DNA of 64,000 nt, taken from NCBI RefSeq assembly GCF_013402875.1, contig NZ_CP058579.1, positions 3,348,001 through 3,412,000 of the forward strand, in the 5' to 3' direction. The translations under genes and the position numbers were made by a program. Shown one piece after another: positions 1-11,328 of this stretch; positions within the stretch are counted from its first letter, which is position 1; each line of letters opens with the position of its first letter. Below the pieces are notes generated by a model. It worked only from the letters and a program-made list of their open reading frames with translations, was not told the DNA's origin and made no database searches. Origin of the DNA: Halorarum salinum. GTDB lineage: Archaea; Halobacteriota; Halobacteria; Halobacteriales; Haloferacaceae.

Positions 1-79
1 AACCGATTGGTGGAAATCCAGAGGGAGGGTTCAGGACGAGTCTCTTAGAGATTCGATGTTCAAGACACCAAACTTTTAC

Positions 80-99
80 GTTGCTTGTTAACAAGTAAC
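80..99. repeat. 20-base imperfect palindrome
   Basis: A perfect 12-base core, CTTGTTAACAAG, sits at 84-95 and extends to 20 bases with one mismatched pair. Its symmetry suggests a site for a dimeric DNA-binding protein. No adjacent promoter or gene fixes its role. Confidence 0.5.
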
Positions 100-199
100 A
101 AAGTAAAAACTTCCTCTAGATACCCCTAATCCCCCCCTCCCCCCACCTTGGAAGCAGATTTGGTAGGGAGAAATCCCTATCCCTATGAATTCGGCAGAA

Positions 200-240
200 T
201 AAGGGGGGTCTGTAAGGGGTCTGTTCGGCACCCCCCCTTA
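200..240. repeat. G-run/C-run inverted repeat
   Basis: The left arm TAAGGGGGGT (200-209) pairs with the right arm ACCCCCCCTTA (230-240), apart from one bulged base. A 9-base direct repeat GGGGTCTGT (205-213 and 216-224) overlaps the left arm and the loop. It could be a hairpin or part of an origin-like region; function unknown. Confidence 0.4.
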
Positions 241-274
241 CCCCGGCATAGAAGGACTTAAGCAGTCGGAAGTC

Positions 275-388
275 TTACATATATTCGTTCAGAAACCGCC
301 ATCCTTCGTCGGGGTCGGCCATCTCTGGACGAGTCAATCTTGCTGGGAACCGGCGGGCGGGGAATCCCCGCTCGCTGCTCTCGTTCAC
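275..388 (-). CDS. possible 37-residue protein
   Basis: An open frame with a GTG start at 388 and TAA at 275-277 would encode 37 residues ending in a plausible coding-like tail (MADPDEGWRFLNEYM). The frame stays open upstream of 388 as far as a stop near 424, so the start is uncertain and this could also be the tail of a decayed gene. No family is recognised and no promoter decides the case. Low confidence. Confidence 0.3.
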   Translation of the reverse strand: MNESSERGFPARRFPARLTRPEMADPDEGWRFLNEYM

Positions 389-410
389 TTGCCTGAGCTG
401 TGGCTGCAGT

Positions 411-446
411 AGTACATCTGTGCGTCAGTACGCCAGTACATCTGTG
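411..446. repeat. pair of 12-base direct repeats
   Basis: AGTACATCTGTG occurs at 411-422 and again at 435-446, a spacing of 24 bases. Repeated sites at such spacing can be iterons or operator half-sites. Only two copies are seen, so the call is just a repeat. Confidence 0.45.
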
Positions 447-727
447 TGGTAATGCAGTTTACTGTCGAGGTGTCTATCCGGTAATCTTCCCAGCAATCCA
501 GTCAGACATACATCCAGATGTGCAGAAACAGAACCAGACAGAAGCAACGACGACAACCCGCGTGCAAGGATATCAGCAACGCACGCGGGCCAACAAGAAT
601 CCCAACCGAACGTGATGCAGTATCGACCAGGGCGGTCAATCGAGTGTGTTAGCTATCCTGTGTGCGACTCCCGGTGATGGGTCATCGCACGAGTATACCA
701 ACGCGGACTATCAGCATAAGCGGGGTC
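447..727. other. intergenic stretch, nothing recognised
   Basis: A plus-strand frame runs through 400-615 but has a weak GTG start, low-complexity threonine/asparagine content and no recognisable motif, so I do not call it. Otherwise no gene, RNA or clear structure is seen between the direct repeats and the small minus-strand gene that ends at 728. Confidence 0.4.
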
Positions 728-928
728 TCAACTCCCATCCTCATGCGGGATGACTAGGGCGTCTGTAGCCTCGTTCGTCGGTGTCCTCTGTAGCGAATCC
801 TTGAACTCTCGCCGCCGGAGGAACTCGTCAAAATCCTCTCCGAACACTTCCTCCACGTCCTCTTCGGTCGCTTCGCCTAGGCAGTACTGGCGGTACACCC
901 GTTCTTTCGCTTCCTCGTTGCCGGTCAT
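728..928 (-). CDS. small acidic protein of the mobile element
   Basis: A 66-residue protein, highly charged and predicted mostly helical in the first 45 residues (MTGNEEAKERVYRQYCLGEA...). The ATG at 928 is preferred over the longer frame up to 1102 because the extension has unlike composition and the sequence just upstream (TTTTACC about 22 bases ahead) can serve as a TATA element. The family is not recognised. A copy of the 16-base motif GTACATTTCCGCTGTA lies about 100 bases upstream on the same strand. Confidence 0.6.
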   Translation of the reverse strand: MTGNEEAKERVYRQYCLGEATEEDVEEVFGEDFDEFLRRREFKDSLQRTPTNEATDALVIPHEDGS

Positions 929-1026
929 GGCCAAGTCACTTGTTGGTAAAAGTGTTGACTCGTTCAAAGGCGTTTTGTCGGCTGTGAATAGAGGTATTCG
1001 AGTTCGAAACCAGTAGAGAATAGGCT

Positions 1027-1042
1027 TACAGCGGAAATGTAC
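1027..1042. promoter_or_regulatory. 16-base motif, copy 1
   Basis: TACAGCGGAAATGTAC on the plus strand, identical to 2252-2267 and close to 2274-2289. It lies in the divergent gap between the minus-strand gene starting at 928 and the plus-strand gene starting at 1126. A protein-binding site is the simplest reading; the binding protein is unknown. Confidence 0.5.
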
Positions 1043-1125
1043 GCTTGAACCGGTTCTGAGACCAGTATCTAACGAACACATGGTAAATCTGAAATATAAC
1101 AAGGACCGGTGAGTGGGTCGTCCTG

Positions 1126-1353
1126 ATGGAGCTTGATATCACCGGCGAGGGTGGATACTCCGACCTGACGATGGGACTCGATGCGACTACGACGCTGGCC
1201 ATCATCCCTACTGAGACGCAGGTCCGGGTGAGCCTCACATCACGTGCCGGTCACGGAGAGATGGGTCTTGGCGTCGGTCTCACTGCAGAGGAGGCGCGGG
1301 ACGTGGGCGAGCAACTCCTCGCTCACGCGACCCTTCTGAACGAGAACGATTAA
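1126..1353 (+). CDS. hypothetical 75-residue protein
   Basis: A short protein with a beta-rich first half (residues 1-40) and a helical end (TAEEARDVGEQLLAHATLL). The 'EEARDVGEQLL' segment resembles haloarchaeal small proteins in which a strand-rich part is followed by one long helix, but I cannot assign a family. It is 26 bases upstream of the HEPN-motif gene, same strand, so the two are probably co-transcribed. It could be a partner (for example an antitoxin) of that protein, which is inference only. Confidence 0.6.
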   Translation: MELDITGEGGYSDLTMGLDATTTLAIIPTETQVRVSLTSRAGHGEMGLGVGLTAEEARDVGEQLLAHATLLNEND

Positions 1354-1379
1354 ATAAATGACAACGCACTGGGCAGACA

Positions 1380-2084
1380 ATGAAAATGAAACTCAGCTTC
1401 TCACCTGTTCATCTTCACGCCGCGAAAGCTCTCTCTTTGGAGGTGGAGGAGATTGAAGCAGCGTTAGCCCAGGGGGAGGAAGATGAGTTCGCAAAAGGAG
1501 AGATACCCGTACGGATGATTCATGATGGCTATGCAGCTAATGCCATCATCAGTTCGACCGCGTTCTTGGAAGCCTCTGTCAACGAGGTCTTCGATTTAAT
1601 GATGACCGCAGCCGAAGGGTGGGAAAGAGCTGGAAAAGATTGGACCGGCACCATGGACGGGGAAGTAATCCTCTACCGTGTGTTACTCGGACTTCGTGAT
1701 GTTGACAAGTATTGGTTCAAGAACAAGAACTCGTTGAAGAAGTATCAACTCCTACTTGTTCACACCGGACGTGAACCCTTTGACACAGGGGAAGGGCTCT
1801 ACCAGCGCGTCAATACGGTCCGTAGATTGCGAAACGACCTCATTCACTTTGAGCCAGATTGGTATGACAGTAAGGAGGAAATCAGTCCACCTGGAAGCAT
1901 CCCGAATGGCTTGGATTTCAATCCATTCTATGAGACAACCCGTGACCCGAAATCCTTCCTTTCTCACGAGATTGTGGATTGGGCCATCGAATCCTGCGCA
2001 CTATTCGCTCTTGAGTTCCGCCGTCGATTGGACATTGAACATTCTGGCATGGAGGACTCGATAGAACAGCTACTGGCGGAGTAA
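1380..2084 (+). CDS. HEPN-motif protein, putative RNase
   Basis: A 234-residue helical protein. Residues 151-156 read RNDLIH, a match to the R-x4-6-H signature that forms the RNase active site of HEPN domains in toxins and defence proteins, and the following HFEPDW is typical of stand-alone HEPN proteins. Helices at about 45-80 and 95-130 fit the HEPN bundle. It belongs to a mobile element, follows a 75-residue ORF by 26 bases, and its 3' end faces a 33-residue ORF two bases away. A toxin or abortive-infection role is inferred from motif and context; substrate unknown. Confidence 0.6.
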   Translation: MKMKLSFSPVHLHAAKALSLEVEEIEAALAQGEEDEFAKGEIPVRMIHDGYAANAIISSTAFLEASVNEVFDLMMTAAEGWERAGKDWTGTMDGEVILYRVLLGLRDVDKYWFKNKNSLKKYQLLLVHTGREPFDTGEGLYQRVNTVRRLRNDLIHFEPDWYDSKEEISPPGSIPNGLDFNPFYETTRDPKSFLSHEIVDWAIESCALFALEFRRRLDIEHSGMEDSIEQLLAE

Positions 2085-2085
2085 C

Positions 2086-2187
2086 TCAGTCGTTACGGAG
2101 GTCACAGCCGCTGGAAGTGTGTGCATGGAGGTACTCTATCACGGTATCCACGGCGGAGTCCGGGGTGACAGTGATGTTCTCAGGCAT
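2086..2187 (-). CDS. possible 33-residue acidic protein, tail-to-tail with the HEPN-motif gene
   Basis: ATG at 2187 and TGA at 2086-2088 give MPENITVTPDSAVDTVIEYL plus 13 residues. A TATA-like CATATCA lies about 24 bases upstream, as for leaderless haloarchaeal genes, and two copies of the 16-base motif lie 65-100 bases upstream on the same strand. The arrangement repeats that of the gene starting at 928. It ends two bases past the HEPN-motif stop. No family is recognised. Confidence 0.35.
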   Translation of the reverse strand: MPENITVTPDSAVDTVIEYLHAHTSSGCDLRND

Positions 2188-2251
2188 GGACTGATGTCAC
2201 TCGGTGTTGATATGTGTTTTGTGGTCATTTGAACGAACGAAATGAATGCTA

Positions 2252-2267
2252 TACAGCGGAAATGTAC
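2252..2267. promoter_or_regulatory. 16-base motif, copy 2
   Basis: TACAGCGGAAATGTAC, identical over 16 bases to copy 1. It lies upstream of the 33-residue ORF and 22 bases from copy 3, about two helical turns, which suits binding of two protein units on one face of the DNA. Confidence 0.5.
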
Positions 2268-2273
2268 ACTCGT

Positions 2274-2289
2274 TACAGCAGAAACGTAC
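2274..2289. promoter_or_regulatory. 16-base motif, copy 3
   Basis: TACAGCAGAAACGTAC differs from copies 1 and 2 at two positions. It sits 22 bases from copy 2 and 14 bases past the stop of the minus-strand membrane-protein gene at 2303. Confidence 0.45.
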
Positions 2290-2302
2290 TCTTCGATTAC
2301 TG

Positions 2303-2602
2303 CTATGGGCGTAGACTCAGGTACGCCTCTTCGAGTTCGTCAATGATGTCGCCCATTGAGTAGTTCGTGTGATGGGCGACTTGAGCTATCCACATTACCG
2401 AAACGACGTACCAGACCCATAGTGGTAGCGATAGTGCAGGAGTGTGTGAGAGTGGGAGCGCGAAGATATTGAGTTTGATTGCAAGTACGATTTTAGCCAA
2501 TGTGAACATGTCCCCTCCAGCCGATATCATAGCGAGCAACCACGCGACCACGATGTTAGTTCCGGCGGGCGGCCCCGACCGCGCGTCTGACGTGCCCATC
2601 AA
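2303..2602 (-). CDS. small membrane protein
   Basis: A 99-residue protein with two or three hydrophobic segments (about residues 16-32, 34-52 and 59-77) and an acidic C-terminal helix (IIDELEEAYLSL). It belongs to a run of small membrane proteins of the element (2303-4876). No family recognised. A start at the second Met of the MM pair is equally possible. Confidence 0.5.
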   Translation of the reverse strand: MMGTSDARSGPPAGTNIVVAWLLAMISAGGDMFTLAKIVLAIKLNIFALPLSHTPALSLPLWVWYVVSVMWIAQVAHHTNYSMGDIIDELEEAYLSLRP

Positions 2603-2652
2603 CTACGCTCGTCGGTTCCTGGGCGACACGGATTCGGTTATAATCGGACAGA

Positions 2653-2985
2653 CTACTCCTCTTCTGACTCAGCCTCGGCTTCATTACTATACTCCACCGA
2701 TGCCTTTGCTACAGTCGGAGTAGCGGTCACATGTACTGTCTCGGCACTCACAGTAATACGTCTCCCAATTTCGACGAGAAGTAGGACGGTGATTGAAAAC
2801 CCGATGATGGGCAGACCGAACGGAATCCCAAGTGCGAATGCAATCACTCCGGCAAGCCCCAGCAGTAGGTCTGCGGCCACCAGCGCCTGTTTCGACCTCT
2901 TGAGCCGGCCATACCAAGGGTCGGGAACGACTACTATCGGTCTATACCCGTTGCGTTTGAATCCTACGCCGCCAATTCGGACCAT
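2653..2985 (-). CDS. small membrane protein with two membrane segments
   Basis: A 110-residue protein: a basic N-terminal part (residues 1-32), two membrane segments (about 34-54 and 56-76), a strand-like stretch and an acidic tail. The start at 2985 is chosen over a longer frame because the longer N-terminus overlaps the divergent gene. Its start codon lies inside the left arm of a perfect 12-base inverted repeat (2974-3015), so it may be controlled there. Function unknown; a virion or envelope protein is one possibility. Confidence 0.55.
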   Translation of the reverse strand: MVRIGGVGFKRNGYRPIVVVPDPWYGRLKRSKQALVAADLLLGLAGVIAFALGIPFGLPIIGFSITVLLLVEIGRRITVSAETVHVTATPTVAKASVEYSNEAEAESEEE

Positions 2986-3015
2986 TCTATTAGCACATAC
3001 TGGATGGTCCGAATT
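2974..3015. promoter_or_regulatory. perfect 12-base inverted repeat in a divergent promoter region
   Basis: AATTCGGACCAT (2974-2985) and ATGGTCCGAATT (3004-3015) are exact reverse complements with an 18-base spacer. The left arm includes the start codon of the minus-strand gene and the right arm abuts the TATA element of the plus-strand gene. This suits an operator that controls both genes. Confidence 0.6.
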
Positions 3016-3016
3016 C

Positions 3017-3024
3017 TTATTAAA
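3017..3024 (+). promoter_or_regulatory. TATA box of the 3046 gene
   Basis: TTATTAAA ends 22 bases ahead of the ATG at 3046, the spacing expected for a leaderless archaeal transcript. Because the element is nearly symmetric it could also serve the divergent gene. Confidence 0.55.
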
Positions 3025-3045
3025 TTCGAATAGGATGTTCCCACT

Positions 3046-3507
3046 ATGATACCGAATCCCGTTCAAGCGATTGCGGACTTTATCAACTCGGCCCTTGCTC
3101 CGATACCGGGCTTCGCCCGGGGGTATGTCGTTATCCTCGGGTTGGGGGCGGTTTTCTGGGCTCTCGGCGCGTTCACAGAGGAGTCCTCGGATGATGCAAT
3201 CGGCCAAATCAGACAGGGCATCAGTGTGTCAAGTTCCGGCCTGAATCGGTTTGCTGAAGTCTCTGCTCCGTTGGTTTCATCCGGGACGATGGTCGGCGGG
3301 AAGACGCTCGCCAGCGTGACTGGTTCCGTAGGGCGCGAGATGTGGAGACGGGGGAGTACCCTCGTTGAGGTAGAAGAGGCTCCCATCAAAGTTGGTCCCC
3401 TCGTGGAAATTTACGGAGTCAGAATCGGCCTGATTGGACTCTTGGTTGGTCTTCTCGGCTTCGGTGGTTTGGCGGCGTTAGCTGGTGGGATTCCGCTTGT
3501 ACCATAG
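3046..3507 (+). CDS. membrane protein with a soluble middle region
   Basis: A 153-residue protein with an amphipathic start (residues 1-22), a first membrane segment (about 26-44), a serine/glycine-rich middle (50-115) and a second membrane segment (about 125-148). The ATG is supported by the TATA box 22 bases upstream. It is 49 bases ahead of the next membrane-protein gene. No family recognised; function unknown. Confidence 0.6.
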   Translation: MIPNPVQAIADFINSALAPIPGFARGYVVILGLGAVFWALGAFTEESSDDAIGQIRQGISVSSSGLNRFAEVSAPLVSSGTMVGGKTLASVTGSVGREMWRRGSTLVEVEEAPIKVGPLVEIYGVRIGLIGLLVGLLGFGGLAALAGGIPLVP

Positions 3508-3528
3508 TGACGTACATCGGCATGAGAA

Positions 3529-3535
3529 CTATATG
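3529..3535 (+). promoter_or_regulatory. TATA box of the 3557 gene
   Basis: CTATATG lies 22-28 bases ahead of the ATG at 3557. An imperfect inverted repeat around ACTATATG and CATAGT (3528-3547) overlaps it and may be a control site. Confidence 0.45.
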
Positions 3536-3556
3536 TTGACTACATAGTGGGTTGAT

Positions 3557-4069
3557 ATGCTCACAGAATTCCTCGGCCAGCACGCCGGATACGTACTTCC
3601 GCAGCTCGCCCTCCTCCTCATCGGGTTCTTCGTCGAGAAGTATTACGTGAGCCGAGTGACGGTCTTGACCAACTCGACGGCGGTAGTTGTTCACGTCATA
3701 TCTCAACCGAACGCCGGTCCCATCTTGGGATTGTATGCGGACTTTGGGCTCGCTCTCGGCGTGTGGGGATTCGCTCATTACGTCCTCGAAGAGAGAAATG
3801 GGGACATCTTTCGGACACTCTCGTTCTTCCTCTACAGTTCTACCAACGTGGCCATCCTCATTCTGACCAGCTCGTTACTCTATGCGGTCGTTGGCGGTGC
3901 ACTCGTACAACTGGGGATGGTCCTTCTGGTCGGGGGCGGTACGCTCTCCTACTTCGGCCCGTACTCGTTTGATGTCCAGTACTTCATCAAGAACGAGTCA
4001 ATACCGTTGTACGACCCCACCAGCCAGCGAAACATCCGCGTCGGGTTGACCGATTACTTCGACACGTAG
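3557..4069 (+). CDS. multi-spanning membrane protein
   Basis: A 170-residue protein with about four hydrophobic segments (roughly residues 9-27, 53-73, 88-108 and 113-135) and a polar C-terminal 35 residues. Own promoter signals precede it. It looks like an integral membrane protein of the mobile element, but no transporter motif or known family is visible. Confidence 0.6.
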   Translation: MLTEFLGQHAGYVLPQLALLLIGFFVEKYYVSRVTVLTNSTAVVVHVISQPNAGPILGLYADFGLALGVWGFAHYVLEERNGDIFRTLSFFLYSSTNVAILILTSSLLYAVVGGALVQLGMVLLVGGGTLSYFGPYSFDVQYFIKNESIPLYDPTSQRNIRVGLTDYFDT

Positions 4070-4112
4070 GGCGGACCCAGATGGCCGATATGTGGAACTA
4101 ATTCGACCCGCG

Positions 4113-4436
4113 TCAGAGGTCGTCGGCGTCCTGATTCTCGTCGAGATACTCTTCCATCGGCGGTGTCTCAAATTCGTCGCCCTCGTCTCGCTCGGGAAGT
4201 TGCTCGCGTCCGAGGTCGTCCATATCTCCAAACAGCGCCTCGCCCGCGTCGAGATTCAGTGTCCCCTCCCAGTCGTCCCGACCTGTCGTAGAAGTGAGAC
4301 CGTCGTGGAACCGCCCCCACGCGCGCCGGAGTTCTCGACTATCTAACTCTGCGCCGACCTCGCACGTCTCCAGTGGCCCATTGGGGTCGGCATCGTCCAT
4401 ATCGAACACGTGAAGGCGAACTGTACGATACGTCAA
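4113..4436 (-). CDS. acidic hypothetical protein
   Basis: 107 residues, very acidic, starting with a strand-like TYRTVRLHVFD. The frame opens with TTG at 4436; an internal ATG at 4400 is the other candidate, but it would remove the only structured-looking segment. The C-terminal 40 residues look disordered (EQLPERDEGDEFETPPMEE). No family recognised. Confidence 0.5.
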   Translation of the reverse strand: MTYRTVRLHVFDMDDADPNGPLETCEVGAELDSRELRRAWGRFHDGLTSTTGRDDWEGTLNLDAGEALFGDMDDLGREQLPERDEGDEFETPPMEEYLDENQDADDL

Positions 4437-4494
4437 GTTTGTAGTCGGTCATAATCGCTTCAACGAGGAGCAAAGGCAAAAGAGCGCCGCGCGG

Positions 4495-4737
4495 TCAGAA
4501 GCCGTCTTGGAGACATGCGATGACAACGATTGCGGCCCCGAGAGCGCCGGGTACGAGCCACGGGAGGGTAGTCACCACCGTCTCAATGAGTTTCCCCTGG
4601 AGGGGATAGAACGGGTCGCCCGGTTGGAGGGCGGCGGACGAGGCGAGGAGCGTATCGAAGAAGGCGATAACGACCAACGCCATGATGGTAGTCCCAACCG
4701 CGCCGACGACGAACTGGATGATTCGGTCCCCGCTCAT
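4495..4737 (-). CDS. small protein with two membrane segments
   Basis: 80 residues from ATG at 4737. Membrane segments at about residues 8-29 and 56-76 are joined by a short proline-rich loop (ALQPGDPFYPLQG). The longer frame to 4857 is rejected because its added part has no membrane-protein character. Such two-helix proteins occur in archaeal viruses and conjugative elements, but no family is recognised here. Confidence 0.6.
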   Translation of the reverse strand: MSGDRIIQFVVGAVGTTIMALVVIAFFDTLLASSAALQPGDPFYPLQGKLIETVVTTLPWLVPGALGAAIVVIACLQDGF

Positions 4738-4807
4738 ACGCGGACCGAGTATGTTAGCTACTAAAACAGTACTGCGTGACGGTGTATCATCGGGATGCCC
4801 GCTAGAG

Positions 4808-4876
4808 TCAAAATGCCACGATGAGCGCGGCGGTCGAGATGACTGTGCCGAGTACAAGGTGGCCGACAGTCATCAT
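4808..4876 (-). CDS. possible 22-residue single-helix membrane peptide
   Basis: ATG-ATG at 4876 and TGA at 4808-4810 encode MMTVGHLVLGTVISTAALIV plus AF, a hydrophobic stretch of membrane-spanning length and nothing else. A short G-run lies just upstream. It is 70 bases ahead of the two-helix protein gene on the same strand. The bias towards a pure membrane helix argues for a real product, but the size leaves this uncertain. Confidence 0.3.
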   Translation of the reverse strand: MMTVGHLVLGTVISTAALIVAF

Positions 4877-4986
4877 TCAATCCCCTGAACCATCCGCAGG
4901 TGCCATTCGAAAACGGTCATGTCGACCCGTTCAAGGACGGAGGTCTGCACCGTGGGGATTTAGCCCAGGGATTCTGAAACCACAGT

Positions 4987-5217
4987 ATGCACCGCTTCGA
5001 CAAGGGCGACCGCGTCAGCATCGATATCCCTGATAAAACTGACCCTGATTTCGACCAGTGGCATGGGGAGACCGGTGAGGTCGTGGAGGTCATCGAAGAT
5101 GATGCGGGCGATTCCACGGGCGATGAACGGGACTCGGTGATACTCCGCGTTGAGCTTGATTCGGGCGAGAATGTGGACTTTCGATGGCGAGACCTTCGTC
5201 CTGCGGGGAGCGCCTGA
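4987..5217 (+). CDS. small SH3-like haloarchaeal protein
   Basis: 76 residues, FDKGDRVSIDIPDKTDPDFD followed by an acidic stretch and ending in DFRWRDLRP. The pattern G-D-x-V ... G-E-V-V-E-V ... V-E-L-D-S-G-E is that of a small SH3-like/KOW-type barrel. I recognise it as a widespread haloarchaeal family of unknown role, from memory rather than a search. It is 33 bases ahead of the methyltransferase gene on the same strand, so it may be co-expressed with the restriction-modification system. Confidence 0.65.
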   Translation: MHRFDKGDRVSIDIPDKTDPDFDQWHGETGEVVEVIEDDAGDSTGDERDSVILRVELDSGENVDFRWRDLRPAGSA

Positions 5218-5250
5218 TACACCGGGTATTTGTAGGACCAGATTCTCGGT

Positions 5251-6933
5251 ATGAGTAACGTGGCTTCGGAACGGAAACAACACGGACAGACCTACACTCC
5301 AGAACCCGTTTCGTCTTTCCTCGTAGAGTGGGCTGTCCGTGATTCGGGTGATACGGTACTGGAGCCCTCGGTCGGAGAGGGTCGGTTTGTATTCGATGCG
5401 TATGACCGCTTGCGAGACCTCGGGGCATCACAGGACGCCGCCCGGGAGCAAATCTATGGTACGGACATTGACGACGAGGCCGTAGAAATCCTACAGTCCT
5501 CGGCGCGTGAGAGTACCGGCGCAGAGTTCTCAAACGTCGGCGTCCAGAATATCTTTGAGACGGACTTCCCGGAGGCGACCGCCCTCGTCGGGAATCCACC
5601 GTATGTCATCCGACATCGATTCGAAAACGCGGAGGACACCATCGAACAGTTCGCTGACCGGTACGATTTTTCCGACCAGAGCGACCTCTACGTATACTTC
5701 TTGCTTCGAGCGGCGGAGTTCCTCGCCCCCGGTGGGAAGATGGCGATGATTGTGTCGAATTCGTGGATGAAGCGGAAGTACGGCGAGGAATTCAAGCGAT
5801 TCCTTCTCAACGAGTTCTACGTCCACGGACTCCTCGGATTCCGTGAGCGCGTTTTCGGAGACCTCGTGAATAGTGTCTGTATCCTTGCAGAGAGGAGAGA
5901 GAACACCATTCGGATGCCCGCCACGAACGACGTGCGGTTCGTGCAGGCTGACAGTACGGATATCTTCAACGGGGACGACGAGAAGACTCTTGATGACCTG
6001 ACCGATGCGGCTGTGCAGGCCGCCCAGGTTCCCCAGCGCGCGCTCGAACCGGAGGACTACTGGGACATCTGGCTCCGCGCCCCGGATGTGTTTGAGGCTA
6101 TCAAGGGGAGCGACGATTTCGTCCCGCTGGCGGAGTTCGCAACCCCGATGATTGGCGTCCAGACGCTTGCCAAGGATTTCTACATCATCGAAGAGGGTGA
6201 CCCCGCGCGGGACGACATCGAAGACGAATACCTCCGCCCGATTGCCTATTCGTCCCGTGACCACCAGACGCCTGTCGTACGGGCGGAGGACTGCCCTTAC
6301 CGCGTCTTCTGGTGCCCGAAGGCGAAGGAGGAACTGGAAGACACTGCCGCACTGGAGTACATTGAAGCGGCGGAGAATCGGACGGTGGAGAAGCGATACA
6401 GCGACGAGACGTACGATGGTCTCCACAACAAGACACGTATCCGCAGCGCCAGTCGTGACCCGTGGTACGATATGACCAGTGAGGCCGAGAGTCGTCTTCC
6501 TTCCGAGATTCTACTCCCTCGGCGTGTGTACGAGAATTACACCGCCGTCTGGAACGCAGATGCCGTGGTGCCGAACGAGAATTTCCTCGCCACGACCGTC
6601 AAAGACCTGCGTCACCTCAAGCCGCTTCTCGCCTACTTGAATTCCCATCTCGGGGAATTGAACCTCCGCCTCGCCGGGCAGGTCTACGGCGGCGGCGTGT
6701 GCGACTTGAACGTCTCCTCCTCGAAGACCATCCAGACGATTGACCTCGAAGCGCATTCCGATGCTGAGCTAGAGACGCTGGCCGAAGCGTTTGACGAGTT
6801 CATGGCGTCGGAGGACAGGGATGTCCTCGACGAAGCCGTATATACTGTTCTCGGCTTCAGCAACGTGGAGCGAAAAGAGATTCAGGAGGCGCTCGACCTT
6901 GCCATCGAAGATTCGCTCAGCAAAGGCAACTAG
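5251..6933 (+). CDS. type II N6-adenine DNA methyltransferase (TaqI-like)
   Basis: 560 residues. It transfers methyl groups from S-adenosylmethionine to adenine in a DNA recognition site. Motif I (EPSVGEG, residues 38-44) binds the cofactor, GTDID (70-74) is motif II and NPPY (115-118) is the catalytic motif IV, in the order of gamma-class N6-adenine methyltransferases. The C-terminal third, including HLKPLLAYLNSHLGELNLRL, resembles the TaqI-like target recognition domain. Its stop codon and that of the convergent nuclease share the CTAG at 6930-6933. Together they form a type II restriction-modification system; the recognition sequence cannot be read from the protein. Confidence 0.9.
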   Translation: MSNVASERKQHGQTYTPEPVSSFLVEWAVRDSGDTVLEPSVGEGRFVFDAYDRLRDLGASQDAAREQIYGTDIDDEAVEILQSSARESTGAEFSNVGVQNIFETDFPEATALVGNPPYVIRHRFENAEDTIEQFADRYDFSDQSDLYVYFLLRAAEFLAPGGKMAMIVSNSWMKRKYGEEFKRFLLNEFYVHGLLGFRERVFGDLVNSVCILAERRENTIRMPATNDVRFVQADSTDIFNGDDEKTLDDLTDAAVQAAQVPQRALEPEDYWDIWLRAPDVFEAIKGSDDFVPLAEFATPMIGVQTLAKDFYIIEEGDPARDDIEDEYLRPIAYSSRDHQTPVVRAEDCPYRVFWCPKAKEELEDTAALEYIEAAENRTVEKRYSDETYDGLHNKTRIRSASRDPWYDMTSEAESRLPSEILLPRRVYENYTAVWNADAVVPNENFLATTVKDLRHLKPLLAYLNSHLGELNLRLAGQVYGGGVCDLNVSSSKTIQTIDLEAHSDAELETLAEAFDEFMASEDRDVLDEAVYTVLGFSNVERKEIQEALDLAIEDSLSKGN

Positions 6934-7922
6934 AGTTCGGCCTCGTGCTGGTACACAAAGTTTTCTCCGGCTGTCGCACCGAAATCCGTATCAATTATCC
7001 CGATAGCGCGTAGGTCGCCCGGGTGGTCGGACAACCAGACATACGAACCGCCACCAATTTTCATCAAATGCGTTCGGAAGCGACCCACGTCGGGGAACAT
7101 CGTAATGAAGACCACTCGGGGGCTGTCGGGGCCAGCCGAACTGGCGCTCCAGCCGTCGATTCCTCGACGTGGTTCGCTCAGGTCAGCGAGGAGTGTCTCG
7201 ATGCGCTGGTCGGTGAACGGCCCACGGCTCGTCACGGATTCTAGCAGGTAGAGGACGCCGTTTGCCTCATCGTAGGCGATGGCGTCCGGGTACACCGAGA
7301 GCCGGAATGAGAGGCCGTCGAACTCGATAGGGAGGAGCTTCTCAGTGATGTCCTCTCGCTCGGACTTATCCAACCCCTCGTGAACGAGAACGGGCGATTC
7401 CGCCAGTCGGGGTACGAGGTCTCGTAGCCCGTCGGCAATTAGTTCCGCATGTTCCCCTGCCGCACGGTGGAGCTCCTCGTCGTGGTACGGAAGCGAGACG
7501 GTTCGGCTACCGTCTTCCACGGGGTCGGGCTGACTGATGGCCTCTTCCAATTCCGCGTTGTCGAGGTATTCACGAACTTCTTGTGCAAGGAAGTAGTGCG
7601 TCTTCGGACTGTTCGGCACCGGCTCGTCGTATCCGAGGATTCCCTTGTCCCGGAGTGGTTTCAGCGCGTCTTTGCGTACGCTCTCCCGCGTGTTCTCTCG
7701 GTATCCGCCAGCTTCAATGATGGTTGTCGGCTGAAAAGCGTAATCGGGGAGGTTATATCGAGTATCGTACTCTTCGTAGAACTTTCGGGACGTGATGAGG
7801 CGCATCACTTCGAGCATCATCCCGTTCATCTCGCTCTTCTGAACGCCAAACTCTCGTAGAACCTGTCGAATCTGAGCCTCAGATAAGTCGTAATCAATGT
7901 CGTCCGCAGACTCGCCTGACAT
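6930..7922 (-). CDS. BsuBI/PstI-type type II restriction endonuclease
   Basis: 330 residues. The N-terminal half (about 15-130) resembles a winged-helix region. The C-terminal half carries the BsuBI/PstI nuclease signature: YPDAIAYDEANGVLYLLESV (211-230) followed by TSRGP, where D213 and E228 fit the PD-(D/E)xK-type active site. It would cut unmethylated DNA at the site protected by the neighbouring methyltransferase. Convergent orientation with a 4-base overlap implies separate promoters, as in other systems where methylase and nuclease are timed differently. Known PstI-family enzymes cut CTGCAG, but the site here is unknown. Confidence 0.85.
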   Translation of the reverse strand: MSGESADDIDYDLSEAQIRQVLREFGVQKSEMNGMMLEVMRLITSRKFYEEYDTRYNLPDYAFQPTTIIEAGGYRENTRESVRKDALKPLRDKGILGYDEPVPNSPKTHYFLAQEVREYLDNAELEEAISQPDPVEDGSRTVSLPYHDEELHRAAGEHAELIADGLRDLVPRLAESPVLVHEGLDKSEREDITEKLLPIEFDGLSFRLSVYPDAIAYDEANGVLYLLESVTSRGPFTDQRIETLLADLSEPRRGIDGWSASSAGPDSPRVVFITMFPDVGRFRTHLMKIGGGSYVWLSDHPGDLRAIGIIDTDFGATAGENFVYQHEAEL

Positions 7923-8001
7923 ATGAGCACCACATCAGTGGCAGTGCATGAACTTACCGGACTATTCAAATTCGATATGACCAGATAGAGGATGGGCCGA
8001 A

Positions 8002-9114
8002 TCAGAACGTCTGTTCTTCTTCTGGTGTCGCTGTTCGGAATCGTTGCCTAGCAGTTTCCCAATCCCCCTTTACGTAATCGAGAGTCGTATCGAATTTGGC
8101 ATGTCCAGCCATCATGCGTAGCGAGTTCAAATCCATACCTTCGTCGTCGTTCGCGTCATTAGCAAGAAATGTGATTCGTGAGTGGCGGAGTCTGTGAGCG
8201 GTGTACAACCACTGTTTCACGTCATCCCCACTACCAACGAGGGGTTCTTGGACGCCTGCATTGTGAGCGGCTCGCTTGACGATGCGCGACATCTCACTGG
8301 GAGACATCCGGTACAAGTCCTTTTCCGACCCGTTCTGTGATGTGACGAATAGGTACGGGCTGTCTCCAGCATTTGGATTCATCTGCTCTCGATGTGATTC
8401 CTTCCATCGGTACATCAGGTAGTCCAAGTTCGGCTCCCACCAGACGTGCCTGTAGTAGAGGTCGGGGTGGTCTTCAGGGTTTAACTTGGCCGAGCGGAAT
8501 TCGATATCTCGTTTGTCCCAATCGATGTTGCCGTAACGGAATCGACTCAATTCGTCGCCTCTAACCGCCGTCTGCCAGAAGAGGCGGATGATGAGTTCGT
8601 TCCGCGTTCGGGTCGCCGGATTCGACCCCGGGATATTCTCGGGTTCAACGAGGGGCTTGATTTTGTCGGGGCCGAGGGCGATGATGTCCTTCCGACCTTC
8701 CCGATACAGAACGGTCACGTAGTCGGACGTATTCTTAATGTCGTAGTCCTTCCGCAGGTTGATGTCCGTCGTCGGATTCCGTTCCAGTTTCCACTCAGCC
8801 TCCGCGTTGTGTTTGAGACCGTGGTAGTACTTTGAGACCGAGGCGACGCGACGGGTTATCGTGGGGTTGGCGTAGTTGTCCCGCTGGAGGTGCTGGATGT
8901 ACAGACGCACGTCGTCCTCCTCCACCGTCAACGGGTCAACGTCTTGTTGTTCACACCAGTAGAGCCACGCGCGGACTCCCGCCTTCAGGCGGTCCTGAGT
9001 CGTTTCTTTATCCACATTGAGCAGCACCCACTCAGCGTACTGTTCGTAGTGGTCGGTATTCTCCTCCAGTCTGTATTTCGCCTCAAACTGCCCCTTGTCG
9101 TTCCGTTCCATCAT
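8002..9114 (-). CDS. tyrosine recombinase/integrase of the element
   Basis: 370 residues. An N-terminal SAM-like core-binding domain (about 22-115) is followed by the catalytic domain (about 140-360) with R185 in AVRGDELSRF, H307-R-L-R310, H338 in AGHAKFDTTLDY and the nucleophile Y347. All expected catalytic residues are present. It should integrate and excise the element by site-specific recombination. Its ATG overlaps the stop of the upstream gene (ATGA), so translation is coupled. It lies near the right junction with secY, the usual place for an integrase gene. Confidence 0.92.
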   Translation of the reverse strand: MMERNDKGQFEAKYRLEENTDHYEQYAEWVLLNVDKETTQDRLKAGVRAWLYWCEQQDVDPLTVEEDDVRLYIQHLQRDNYANPTITRRVASVSKYYHGLKHNAEAEWKLERNPTTDINLRKDYDIKNTSDYVTVLYREGRKDIIALGPDKIKPLVEPENIPGSNPATRTRNELIIRLFWQTAVRGDELSRFRYGNIDWDKRDIEFRSAKLNPEDHPDLYYRHVWWEPNLDYLMYRWKESHREQMNPNAGDSPYLFVTSQNGSEKDLYRMSPSEMSRIVKRAAHNAGVQEPLVGSGDDVKQWLYTAHRLRHSRITFLANDANDDEGMDLNSLRMMAGHAKFDTTLDYVKGDWETARQRFRTATPEEEQTF

Positions 9115-9731
9115 CTATTCGCCTCCGGCTTCAACTCGTACCAGCGGCGCTCACCCTCGTCGATGACGCTGTAGATGTTGAGGTCTTCCTTATGTTCGAG
9201 AAACAAGCATGCCTGCCAGACGCGTATTGGGTCTTCTTCGAGGTGTGCAGTGATGTCATCTACCGTGCCAGAGAGCTTCGCTCGCTCATTCTCGGGGAGT
9301 GTCACACCCGAGTTTTTCAGGTCTACCAGTTCATCCGTTCCGCTGACCAACGGAAGTGTGTCGTGGACCCTGGTGGCGAATTTCTGTAACTCGTTACCCC
9401 TCAGTCGTTCGGCGGATACGCCGCCACCGGAGAGGGTGTCCAACTGCTCTTGAATCGCCGCCAGTTGGTCGGTGATGCCGTCGATGTCCTCGTCTAGGCC
9501 CGAGAGGTTGACCTCCACCCCGTCGGTCTCCTCTTCTTCATCTTCTTTGAGAATCCACACCCCGCTGAGGGCCTTATCCACGGTTTCTTCTATGAACGCT
9601 GATAGGTTCCCCCGGTGGTGTTCCTCCGCTTGTTCGAGCCACACCTTCTTTTTTCGCTTACTGATAGTGAGATGGACGTGCCGAGATACCTCTTCTAAGT
9701 CGTCGTCCACCTCGTCTTTTCTCTTCGCCAT
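9111..9731 (-). CDS. ribbon-helix-helix-like protein coupled to the integrase
   Basis: 206 residues. Residues 17-55 (HVHLTISKRKKKVWLEQAEE then NLSAFIEETVDKAL) match the strand-helix-helix layout of a ribbon-helix-helix DNA-binding domain. A coiled-coil stretch follows (about 80-100) and the last 90 residues look like a helical, possibly winged-helix, domain. It overlaps the integrase start by 4 bases. A role in integrase regulation or excision is inferred from this coupling. Confidence 0.7.
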   Translation of the reverse strand: MAKRKDEVDDDLEEVSRHVHLTISKRKKKVWLEQAEEHHRGNLSAFIEETVDKALSGVWILKEDEEEETDGVEVNLSGLDEDIDGITDQLAAIQEQLDTLSGGGVSAERLRGNELQKFATRVHDTLPLVSGTDELVDLKNSGVTLPENERAKLSGTVDDITAHLEEDPIRVWQACLFLEHKEDLNIYSVIDEGERRWYELKPEANR

Positions 9732-9857
9732 AGGACGCGTAGTCTATCTCCGGTAATGAGTGTTATCATCTTGTTGACAGAATCTACCCACATTTGGTGA
9801 GATGGATTAATCTACACGGATTGAGGCGAAGAAAAGACCGTGTTACAGGATGTTGGT

Positions 9858-9885
9858 CAGATGTTCAATCTGAACCGAACATCTG
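9858..9885. repeat. 9-base inverted repeat across the secY stop codon
   Basis: CAGATGTTC (9858-9866) and GAACATCTG (9877-9885) are perfect reverse complements with a 10-base loop. The repeat spans the secY stop and lies next to the integrase module. It could be part of the attachment site, with arms bound by the recombinase, or a secY terminator hairpin. Confidence 0.45.
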
Positions 9886-11328
9886 GCGCATCATGGGGTG
9901 CATCTCCATGAGTTGCTCCTCGGCGATCTCCTCGTACAGCTTGTACGTGATGGAGACCGTGAGCAGCAGCCCCGTCCCGGAGACGCCCCCGAGCGTGCCG
10001 AGCATGTTCGCCAGCACGGCGAGCAGGCCGACGAGCGCGCCGCCGATGACGGTCACCTGCGGGATGTACCGCTCCATGACCTTCTCGATCACCTGCGGGT
10101 TGCGCCGGAACCCGGGGATCTGCATCCCGGAGTTCTGGATCTGCTGGGCGGTCGACTCGGGCCCCATGCCCGTGGTCTCGACCCAGAAGATCGCGAAGAC
10201 GGCCGACCCGACGATCGTCACGAACAGGTCGACGGCGACGCGCAGGGCGATCTCGGCCGGTTCGGCCGCCGGCGCGTAGATGAACCACATCCAGTCCTGG
10301 CGCGACTGGATCGGCGCCAGGTAGTAGAACACGCCGCCGGTCACCTGGCCGTCCGCGTACTGGCCGAGCCACGCCGGCATCGAGGCCAGCTGTGAGTGCA
10401 GGATCTGGCCCAGGAACTGGACGTTCGCCTGCAGCGCGCGGATGAGGATCATCGGCAGGACGCTGGCGTAGATGAGCTTCACGGGGAAGCGGCCGCGGGC
10501 GCCCTTCACGCGGGCGTGGCTAAGCGGGATCTCGACGCGCACGCTCTCGGCGTACACGACGATGGCGAAGATGAGCACCGTCGTGAACAGCGCGAGCAGG
10601 TTGCCCGGCTCGAACAGCAGCGCCTGGACGAGCGAGCCCTCCAGCTGGATGCTCCCGGTGACGATGCCGAACCACGCCGGGAAGAAGCCGGTGACGTTGC
10701 CGAGCGCCTCGGTGGCGAACAGCCCGGCGACGAGCTGCTGGCTCACGCTGGCGATGATGAACAGGCCGATCCCGGAGCCGACGCCCCACTTGGAGATGAC
10801 CTCGTCCATGAACAGGATGAGCACGCCGCCGACGAAGATCTGCGCGAAGATGAGGCTCTTCACGCCGAACGTCGCCGTCTGCGAGCCGAACAGTAGCTGG
10901 GCGACCGCGGGGTCCGCGGGCAGGAAGTCGCCCGCGAACACCATCGGAAGCCCCGTCAGGCAGATCATCACGACGACGAGCAGCTTCTGGAGGCCCTGGT
11001 ACAGCACCTGATCGCGCGGATCGTCGGTGTCCAGTCCCAGCAGGTTCGCCCCGCCGAGCAACTGTAGCACGATCGACGCCGTGACGATGGGACCGATGCC
11101 GAGTTGCATGATCGACCCCTGCTGTCCCGCGAGGATCGACCGGAACTGGCCGTAGAAGTCCCCGCTCGCGGTTCCCATCCCGAAGATCGTCACGTTCGTC
11201 AGGAAGAAGTACATCACCAGGATGCCGCCGGTCCACGCCAGCTTCCGCTTGAAGGGGACGTGCCCCTCCGGTCGCGTGACCGTGGGCATCCGTGTGAGCA
11301 CCGGTTCCGCGGCCTCCTTCCAACTCAT
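9865..11328 (-). CDS. secY: protein translocase subunit SecY
   Basis: 487 residues, a ten-helix membrane protein that forms the protein-conducting channel with SecE and SecG/Sbh. The start (PFKRKLAWTGGILVMYFFL) and internal segments such as GSGIGLFIIASVSQQ are typical of archaeal SecY. It is the last gene of the spc operon here, 3 bases after rpl15. The mobile element begins immediately downstream, and the last codons carry a 9-base inverted repeat. Confidence 0.97.
   Translation of the reverse strand: MSWKEAAEPVLTRMPTVTRPEGHVPFKRKLAWTGGILVMYFFLTNVTIFGMGTASGDFYGQFRSILAGQQGSIMQLGIGPIVTASIVLQLLGGANLLGLDTDDPRDQVLYQGLQKLLVVVMICLTGLPMVFAGDFLPADPAVAQLLFGSQTATFGVKSLIFAQIFVGGVLILFMDEVISKWGVGSGIGLFIIASVSQQLVAGLFATEALGNVTGFFPAWFGIVTGSIQLEGSLVQALLFEPGNLLALFTTVLIFAIVVYAESVRVEIPLSHARVKGARGRFPVKLIYASVLPMILIRALQANVQFLGQILHSQLASMPAWLGQYADGQVTGGVFYYLAPIQSRQDWMWFIYAPAAEPAEIALRVAVDLFVTIVGSAVFAIFWVETTGMGPESTAQQIQNSGMQIPGFRRNPQVIEKVMERYIPQVTVIGGALVGLLAVLANMLGTLGGVSGTGLLLTVSITYKLYEEIAEEQLMEMHPMMRQMFGSD

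What the first reader, a model, noticed from the sequence alone, without database searches (positions are those of the whole stretch)
2303..4876. Cluster of five or six very small membrane proteins, including a 22-residue peptide
Five unrelated-looking proteins of 80-170 residues with one to four membrane segments, and a 22-codon ORF coding for a bare membrane helix, are packed in 2.6 kb. This could be an envelope or virion module of a virus-like element, or a membrane-acting defence module. No member matches a family I know.
Basis: inference. Interest (0 to 1): 0.6.

Follow-up and report, generated by a model that had tools for sequence, protein, structure and literature searches.

The report
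Membrane-gene cargo of secY-inserted archaeal element
A stretch of DNA rich in small membrane-protein genes is accessory cargo of a 16-kb mobile element inserted at the end of a salt-loving archaeon's secY gene; one of the genes comes from a family otherwise found only beside the structural genes of membrane-enveloped (pleolipovirus-type) viruses, but the element itself is not such a virus.

Summary
The ORFs exist, but two starts and one claim need correcting. Five small membrane proteins (98, 110, 153, 170 and 80 aa) lie on both strands with one soluble acidic ORF among them. The 22-codon ORF has no support beyond chance. They sit in a 16,165-bp, 54% GC element inserted in a 70% GC contig, flanked by 19-bp repeats formed from the 3' end of secY. 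It encodes a tyrosine integrase, a partner protein, an MCM helicase and a type II restriction-modification pair. Related secY-inserted elements occur in seven other genomes with different cargo, so these genes are cargo rather than one conserved module. Their histories differ. The 98-aa protein belongs to a family whose ten other loci all lie within about 6 kb of pleolipovirus-type genes, often directly after the virion ATPase. The 80-aa protein is a two-helix family of plasmids and islands. The 170-aa protein occurs alone on haloarchaeal plasmids. The 110-aa protein has weak relatives, the 153-aa protein none. The element has no spike, VP3-like protein or packaging-type ATPase. Best reading: accessory, probably anti-virus or superinfection-exclusion cargo; mechanism unproven.

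The parts
1..9893 (.). Right part of a 16,165-bp integrated element (left end at L011:13710, i.e. about 6,290 bases left of the window), ending in the 19-bp att copy at 9875-9893 inside the secY 3' end
   Evidence: 19-bp direct repeat CCGAACATCTGGCGCATCA at both ends, both restoring ...MRQMFGSD*; 54% GC against about 70% outside
9865..11328 (-). secY (host preprotein translocase), 3' end is the integration site
   Evidence: translation; att
9111..9731 (-). 206-aa protein paired with the integrase in all eight elements
   Evidence: tblastn 33-38% identity next to the integrase in the seven other secY elements
8002..9114 (-). tyrosine integrase of the secY-targeting family
   Evidence: PF00589 E 1.2e-10; relatives 53-67% identical in seven genomes, with the secY-end att sequence recognised next to it in six of them
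6930..7922 (-). BsuBI/PstI-type restriction endonuclease
   Evidence: PF06616 E 1.1e-13
5251..6933 (+). Eco57I-like N6 adenine methyltransferase
   Evidence: PF07669 E 1.3e-20
4987..5217 (+). p76, small soluble protein recurring beside the 80-aa family and in other secY elements
   Evidence: tblastn hits in L051, L083, L094, L095 and in the G104 and G096 loci
4808..4876 (-). 22-codon hydrophobic ORF (not supported as a gene)
   Evidence: 0.25 expected by chance in the element, one found
4495..4737 (-). tm80: 80-aa protein with two membrane helices and a conserved PGDPFY loop
   Evidence: family in 13 of 391 class genomes; alignment A2; purifying selection
4113..4400 (-). p95, soluble acidic protein
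   Evidence: short conserved matches in several haloarchaeal genomes, including the G020 secY element
3557..4069 (+). tm170: hydrophobic 170-aa membrane protein
   Evidence: relatives 33-44% identical on 8 haloarchaeal plasmids; the four contexts read are host-like plasmid genes
3046..3507 (+). tm153: membrane protein without relatives
   Evidence: two hydropathy segments; no relative in two searches of about 290 haloarchaeal genomes each or in viral contigs
2653..2985 (-). tm110: 110-aa protein with a membrane hairpin
   Evidence: weak relatives, 33-34% identity, with longer soluble C-termini
2303..2599 (-). tm99: 98-aa membrane protein of a pleolipovirus-linked family (motif LAIKLNVFALPL)
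   Evidence: ten other loci, all beside pleolipovirus-type genes; dN 0.21, dS 2.5
1380..2084 (+). 234-aa protein with an RNDLIH (Rx4H) HEPN-like motif
   Evidence: sequence; weak HEPN_RiboL-PSP hit E 0.17

Best explanation
The cluster is accessory cargo of an integrative, plasmid-like element that inserts into the 3' end of secY by a tyrosine integrase acting with a small partner protein, and probably replicates with its own MCM helicase. The membrane genes were collected one by one rather than inherited as one module. The 98-aa gene (tm99) belongs to a family otherwise found in pleolipovirus-type proviruses. Shown: the element, its ends, the element family, different relatives for each gene, tm99's link to pleolipovirus-type structural genes, and absence of spike and packaging-type ATPase from the genome. 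Inferred: the cargo sits in the host membrane and acts against competing elements. For tm99 the most likely mode is superinfection exclusion: a lone copy of a virus-linked membrane protein that interferes with entry, fusion or assembly of related pleolipoviruses, alongside the restriction-modification pair, which attacks incoming DNA. Probability of the cargo reading is about 0.8; of the superinfection-exclusion step about 0.3. The confidence given is for the reading as a whole.
For: 19-bp att repeats in secY with both copies restoring the stop, and a sharp GC step. Same-genus secY ends run into other DNA. Seven further genomes carry the integrase plus partner, most shown to lie right after secY, and three have the second att copy (G104 15.7 kb, G292 22.2 kb, G020 24 kb), with cargo that differs between elements. 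tm99: all ten other loci within about 6 kb of pleolipovirus-type genes, in several directly after the ATPase; no spike or ATPase in this genome. A decayed fragment of the same ATPase lies in the G020 secY element, so these elements do exchange DNA with pleolipoviruses. tm80 is also near the integrase in the G312 secY element. tm170 is a stand-alone plasmid gene. MCM (PF00493 E 3.9e-57) and restriction-modification genes.
Against: No function of any of the five proteins is known. PADLOC found no defence family for them, only a weak 4TM effector match (E 0.026) for tm99. The clustering of five membrane genes is more than chance would give at usual background rates, which could point to a joint function. 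The predicted structures are of low confidence and gave no clue.
Confidence: 0.55

Rival explanations
1. Envelope or virion module of a virus-like element: the small membrane proteins build the particle in which the element travels.
For: tm99's family lies next to pleolipovirus structural genes, in several provirus loci directly after the ATPase; deposited pleolipoviruses encode several small membrane proteins in that block (annotations).
Against: No spike or ATPase in the whole genome; pleolipovirus structural proteins do not convincingly match the element; the related secY elements lack these genes, with no tm99 match and tm80 only in G312; the other four proteins have unrelated contexts.
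Confidence: 0.1
2. Satellite of pleolipoviruses: the element lacks its own particle genes and uses tm99 to be packaged into envelopes made by a co-resident pleolipovirus.
For: tm99 is the one structural-neighbourhood gene kept, under purifying selection; the G020 element holds an ATPase fragment; five of eight genomes with secY elements carry a spike gene elsewhere.
Against: No helper in this genome; tm99 is absent from the other secY elements; no packaging signal was sought.
Confidence: 0.08
3. Neutral pick-up: the genes are transient hitch-hikers with no role in the element or host.
For: Cargo differs between relatives; tm153 has no relatives.
Against: tm99 and tm80 are under purifying selection between distant relatives, and the frames are intact here.
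Confidence: 0.2

Closest known systems
Betapleolipoviruses (SNJ2, HGPV-1) and related pleolipoviruses such as Harhisp1 (Pleolipoviridae)
   Same: tm99's relatives lie beside the same VP3 - spike - ORF6 - ORF7 - ATPase block; some members are integrated haloarchaeal elements of similar size with a tyrosine integrase
   Different: This element has no spike, VP3-like protein or ATPase; it carries MCM and inserts in secY rather than the tRNA site reported for SNJ2 (PMC8371274); tm99 has no match in deposited phage genomes
pR1SE-like plasmids (apHPVs, plasmid vesicles)
   Same: Haloarchaeal element with MCM (20 of 41 apHPVs have MCM; PMC10818511) and integrase
   Different: No S8 protease match among the proteins scanned here (pR1SE itself was not held)
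Archaeal dark-matter islands (PMC4158269)
   Same: Fast-evolving mobile DNA rich in small membrane proteins near restriction-modification genes
   Different: This one is delimited to the base and belongs to a defined integrase/secY family

Membership tests
Pleolipoviridae | spike protein (phrog_2231) | tested here: not met
   no match in the genome or element
Pleolipoviridae | VP8-like ATPase (phrog_1979) | tested here: not met
   no match in the genome
Pleolipoviridae | VP3-like internal membrane protein | tested here: not met
   VP3-type proteins of two proviruses do not match the element (best E 0.11); no significant PHROG family for the small membrane proteins
Pleolipoviridae | membrane-vesicle-like infectious particle | not testable with these tools
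   needs particles
secY-integrating integrase elements (defined here) | integrase of this family plus its 206-aa-type partner next to the secY 3' end | tested here: met
secY-integrating integrase elements (defined here) | direct att repeats of the secY 3' end at both ends | tested here: met
[quoted passage not shown]
   no S8 protease match among the proteins scanned against Pfam; apHPV profiles were not available
known anti-phage membrane effectors | match to a PADLOC effector model | tested here: not met
   only PDLC00720 4TM at E 0.026 for tm99

The most novel reading that the evidence does not exclude
secY-inserted elements are satellites or competitors of pleolipoviruses that carry a single envelope-neighbourhood gene (tm99) to exploit or block their particles, a relation not known to me for enveloped archaeal viruses.
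Probability: 0.12. Interest if true: 0.75.

Novelty: new variant of a known kind. Interest (0 to 1): 0.36.

Why it matters
It defines a family of haloarchaeal integrative elements that use the 3' end of secY, a protein-coding gene, as their site; two searches of the paper library and a look for secY in the review of archaeal recombinases held there gave no report of it. It also gives a named, conserved small membrane protein tied to pleolipovirus structural genes that has no match in deposited phage genomes, which makes its role in envelope formation or superinfection exclusion testable.

Tried and rejected
Virion module (no structural genes). 22-aa peptide as a gene (chance rate; no convincing likeness to the small two-helix partner proteins). 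The same-position gene of known pleolipoviruses as a relative of tm99: those after the ATPase in SNJ2, Harhisp1 and HGPV-1 are soluble and unlike it. tm80 in viral contigs: two hits covering only 33 residues in contigs without recognisable archaeal-virus context, discounted. Structure prediction of tm153 and tm99: mean pLDDT 59 and 57, too low, no fold search run.

Full report
What is there. The window starts inside a mobile element. GC is 52-59% up to about 9.9 kb and about 70% beyond. Its right end is a 19-bp sequence, CCGAACATCTGGCGCATCA, at 9875-9893 inside the 3' end of secY; the same 19 bp lies 16,165 bp to the left (L011:13710-13728), and each copy encodes the last residues of SecY followed by a stop. 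Integration therefore leaves secY intact. In the two same-genus genomes the secY end runs into other DNA and neither the element nor its integrase is found.

The element. From right to left it carries a 206-aa integrase partner and a tyrosine integrase, a BsuBI/PstI-type endonuclease, an Eco57I-like methyltransferase, the reported cluster, a 234-aa protein with a HEPN-like RNDLIH motif (weak profile match only), an MCM helicase, and two further membrane proteins of 190 and 574 aa. Seven other genomes have an integrase 53-67% identical together with its partner; the secY-end att sequence was recognised next to it in six of them (not in the G200 locus), and the second att copy was found in G104, G292 and G020, whose elements are 15.7, 22.2 and 24 kb long. 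Outside the integrase end their cargo varies and includes restriction- and helicase-like genes (read from sequence, not profile-tested). So the cluster is cargo.

The five membrane proteins. tm99 (98 aa): a profile search of 381 class genomes and a scan of the genome collection gave, with earlier hits, ten other loci; every one has pleolipovirus-type genes (VP3-like, spike, ORF6, ORF7 or ATPase) within about 6 kb, and in L052-L055 and L132 tm99 follows the ATPase on the same strand. It has no match in deposited phages, plasmids or viral contigs at the sensitivities used. Against its closest relative dN is 0.21 and dS 2.5. tm80: a family with two helices joined by a PGDPFY-type loop, found in 13 of 391 genomes, on a Halobacterium hubeiense plasmid that also has MCM, in the G312 secY element near the integrase, and in chromosomal islets; in five loci it is adjacent to a second small two-helix protein, but those partners are mostly not detectably related to each other. 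tm170: on haloarchaeal plasmids, stand-alone. tm110: weak relatives with extra soluble domains. tm153: none found.

Is it a virus? The genome has no match to the pleolipovirus ATPase or spike families. Five of the eight genomes with secY elements have a spike, but at other places. A decayed ATPase fragment in the G020 element shows that secY elements meet pleolipoviruses. I therefore read tm99 as a gene taken from a pleolipovirus-type provirus (inference).

How it probably works. Shown: the element, its site, its family, the gene relations above and selection on tm99 and tm80. Inferred: these proteins sit in the host membrane; with the restriction-modification pair they favour the carrier cell against other elements; tm99, as a lone copy of a protein tied to virus structural genes, would most simply act by superinfection exclusion. 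I give that step about 0.3. A satellite relation is possible but has no helper in this genome.

Limits. Gene starts follow homologs where available, otherwise the first reasonable ATG. Gene calls in related loci were made by a simple composition-based script. Membrane segments rest on hydropathy, not on a topology predictor. The paper library holds only open-licence papers, so 'not reported' is provisional.

Noticed in passing
window 1380-2084 (+): 234-aa protein with RNDLIH (Rx4H) as in HEPN ribonucleases; preceded by a 75-aa ORF that could be its partner.
   Followed up: partly
window 4113-4400 (-), L056:17566-17658, L093:2345-2410: Small acidic protein p95 with a short conserved stretch (GRDDWEGTLNLDAGEALFG) that recurs in several haloarchaeal genomes, including another secY element.
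   Followed up: partly
window 4987-5217 (+); L051, L083, L094, L095, and the G104 and G096 loci: p76, a small protein recurring in secY elements and beside the two-helix family; weak likeness to ribosomal protein L21e.
   Followed up: partly
L057:3203-5036 and L057:11482-14559: An element with a VP3-like gene and tm99 where spike and ATPase were not found, with an MCM match about 8 kb away and an integrase-like ORF between; looks like a reduced pleolipovirus-type element.
   Followed up: partly
L053:12745-15588, L052:5402-8314: Unusually long proteins (947 and 970 aa) in the spike position of pleolipovirus-type proviruses that carry tm99.
   Followed up: no
L011:13930-15654 (-): 574-aa protein with about 12 membrane segments at the left end of the element; no family match.
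   Followed up: partly
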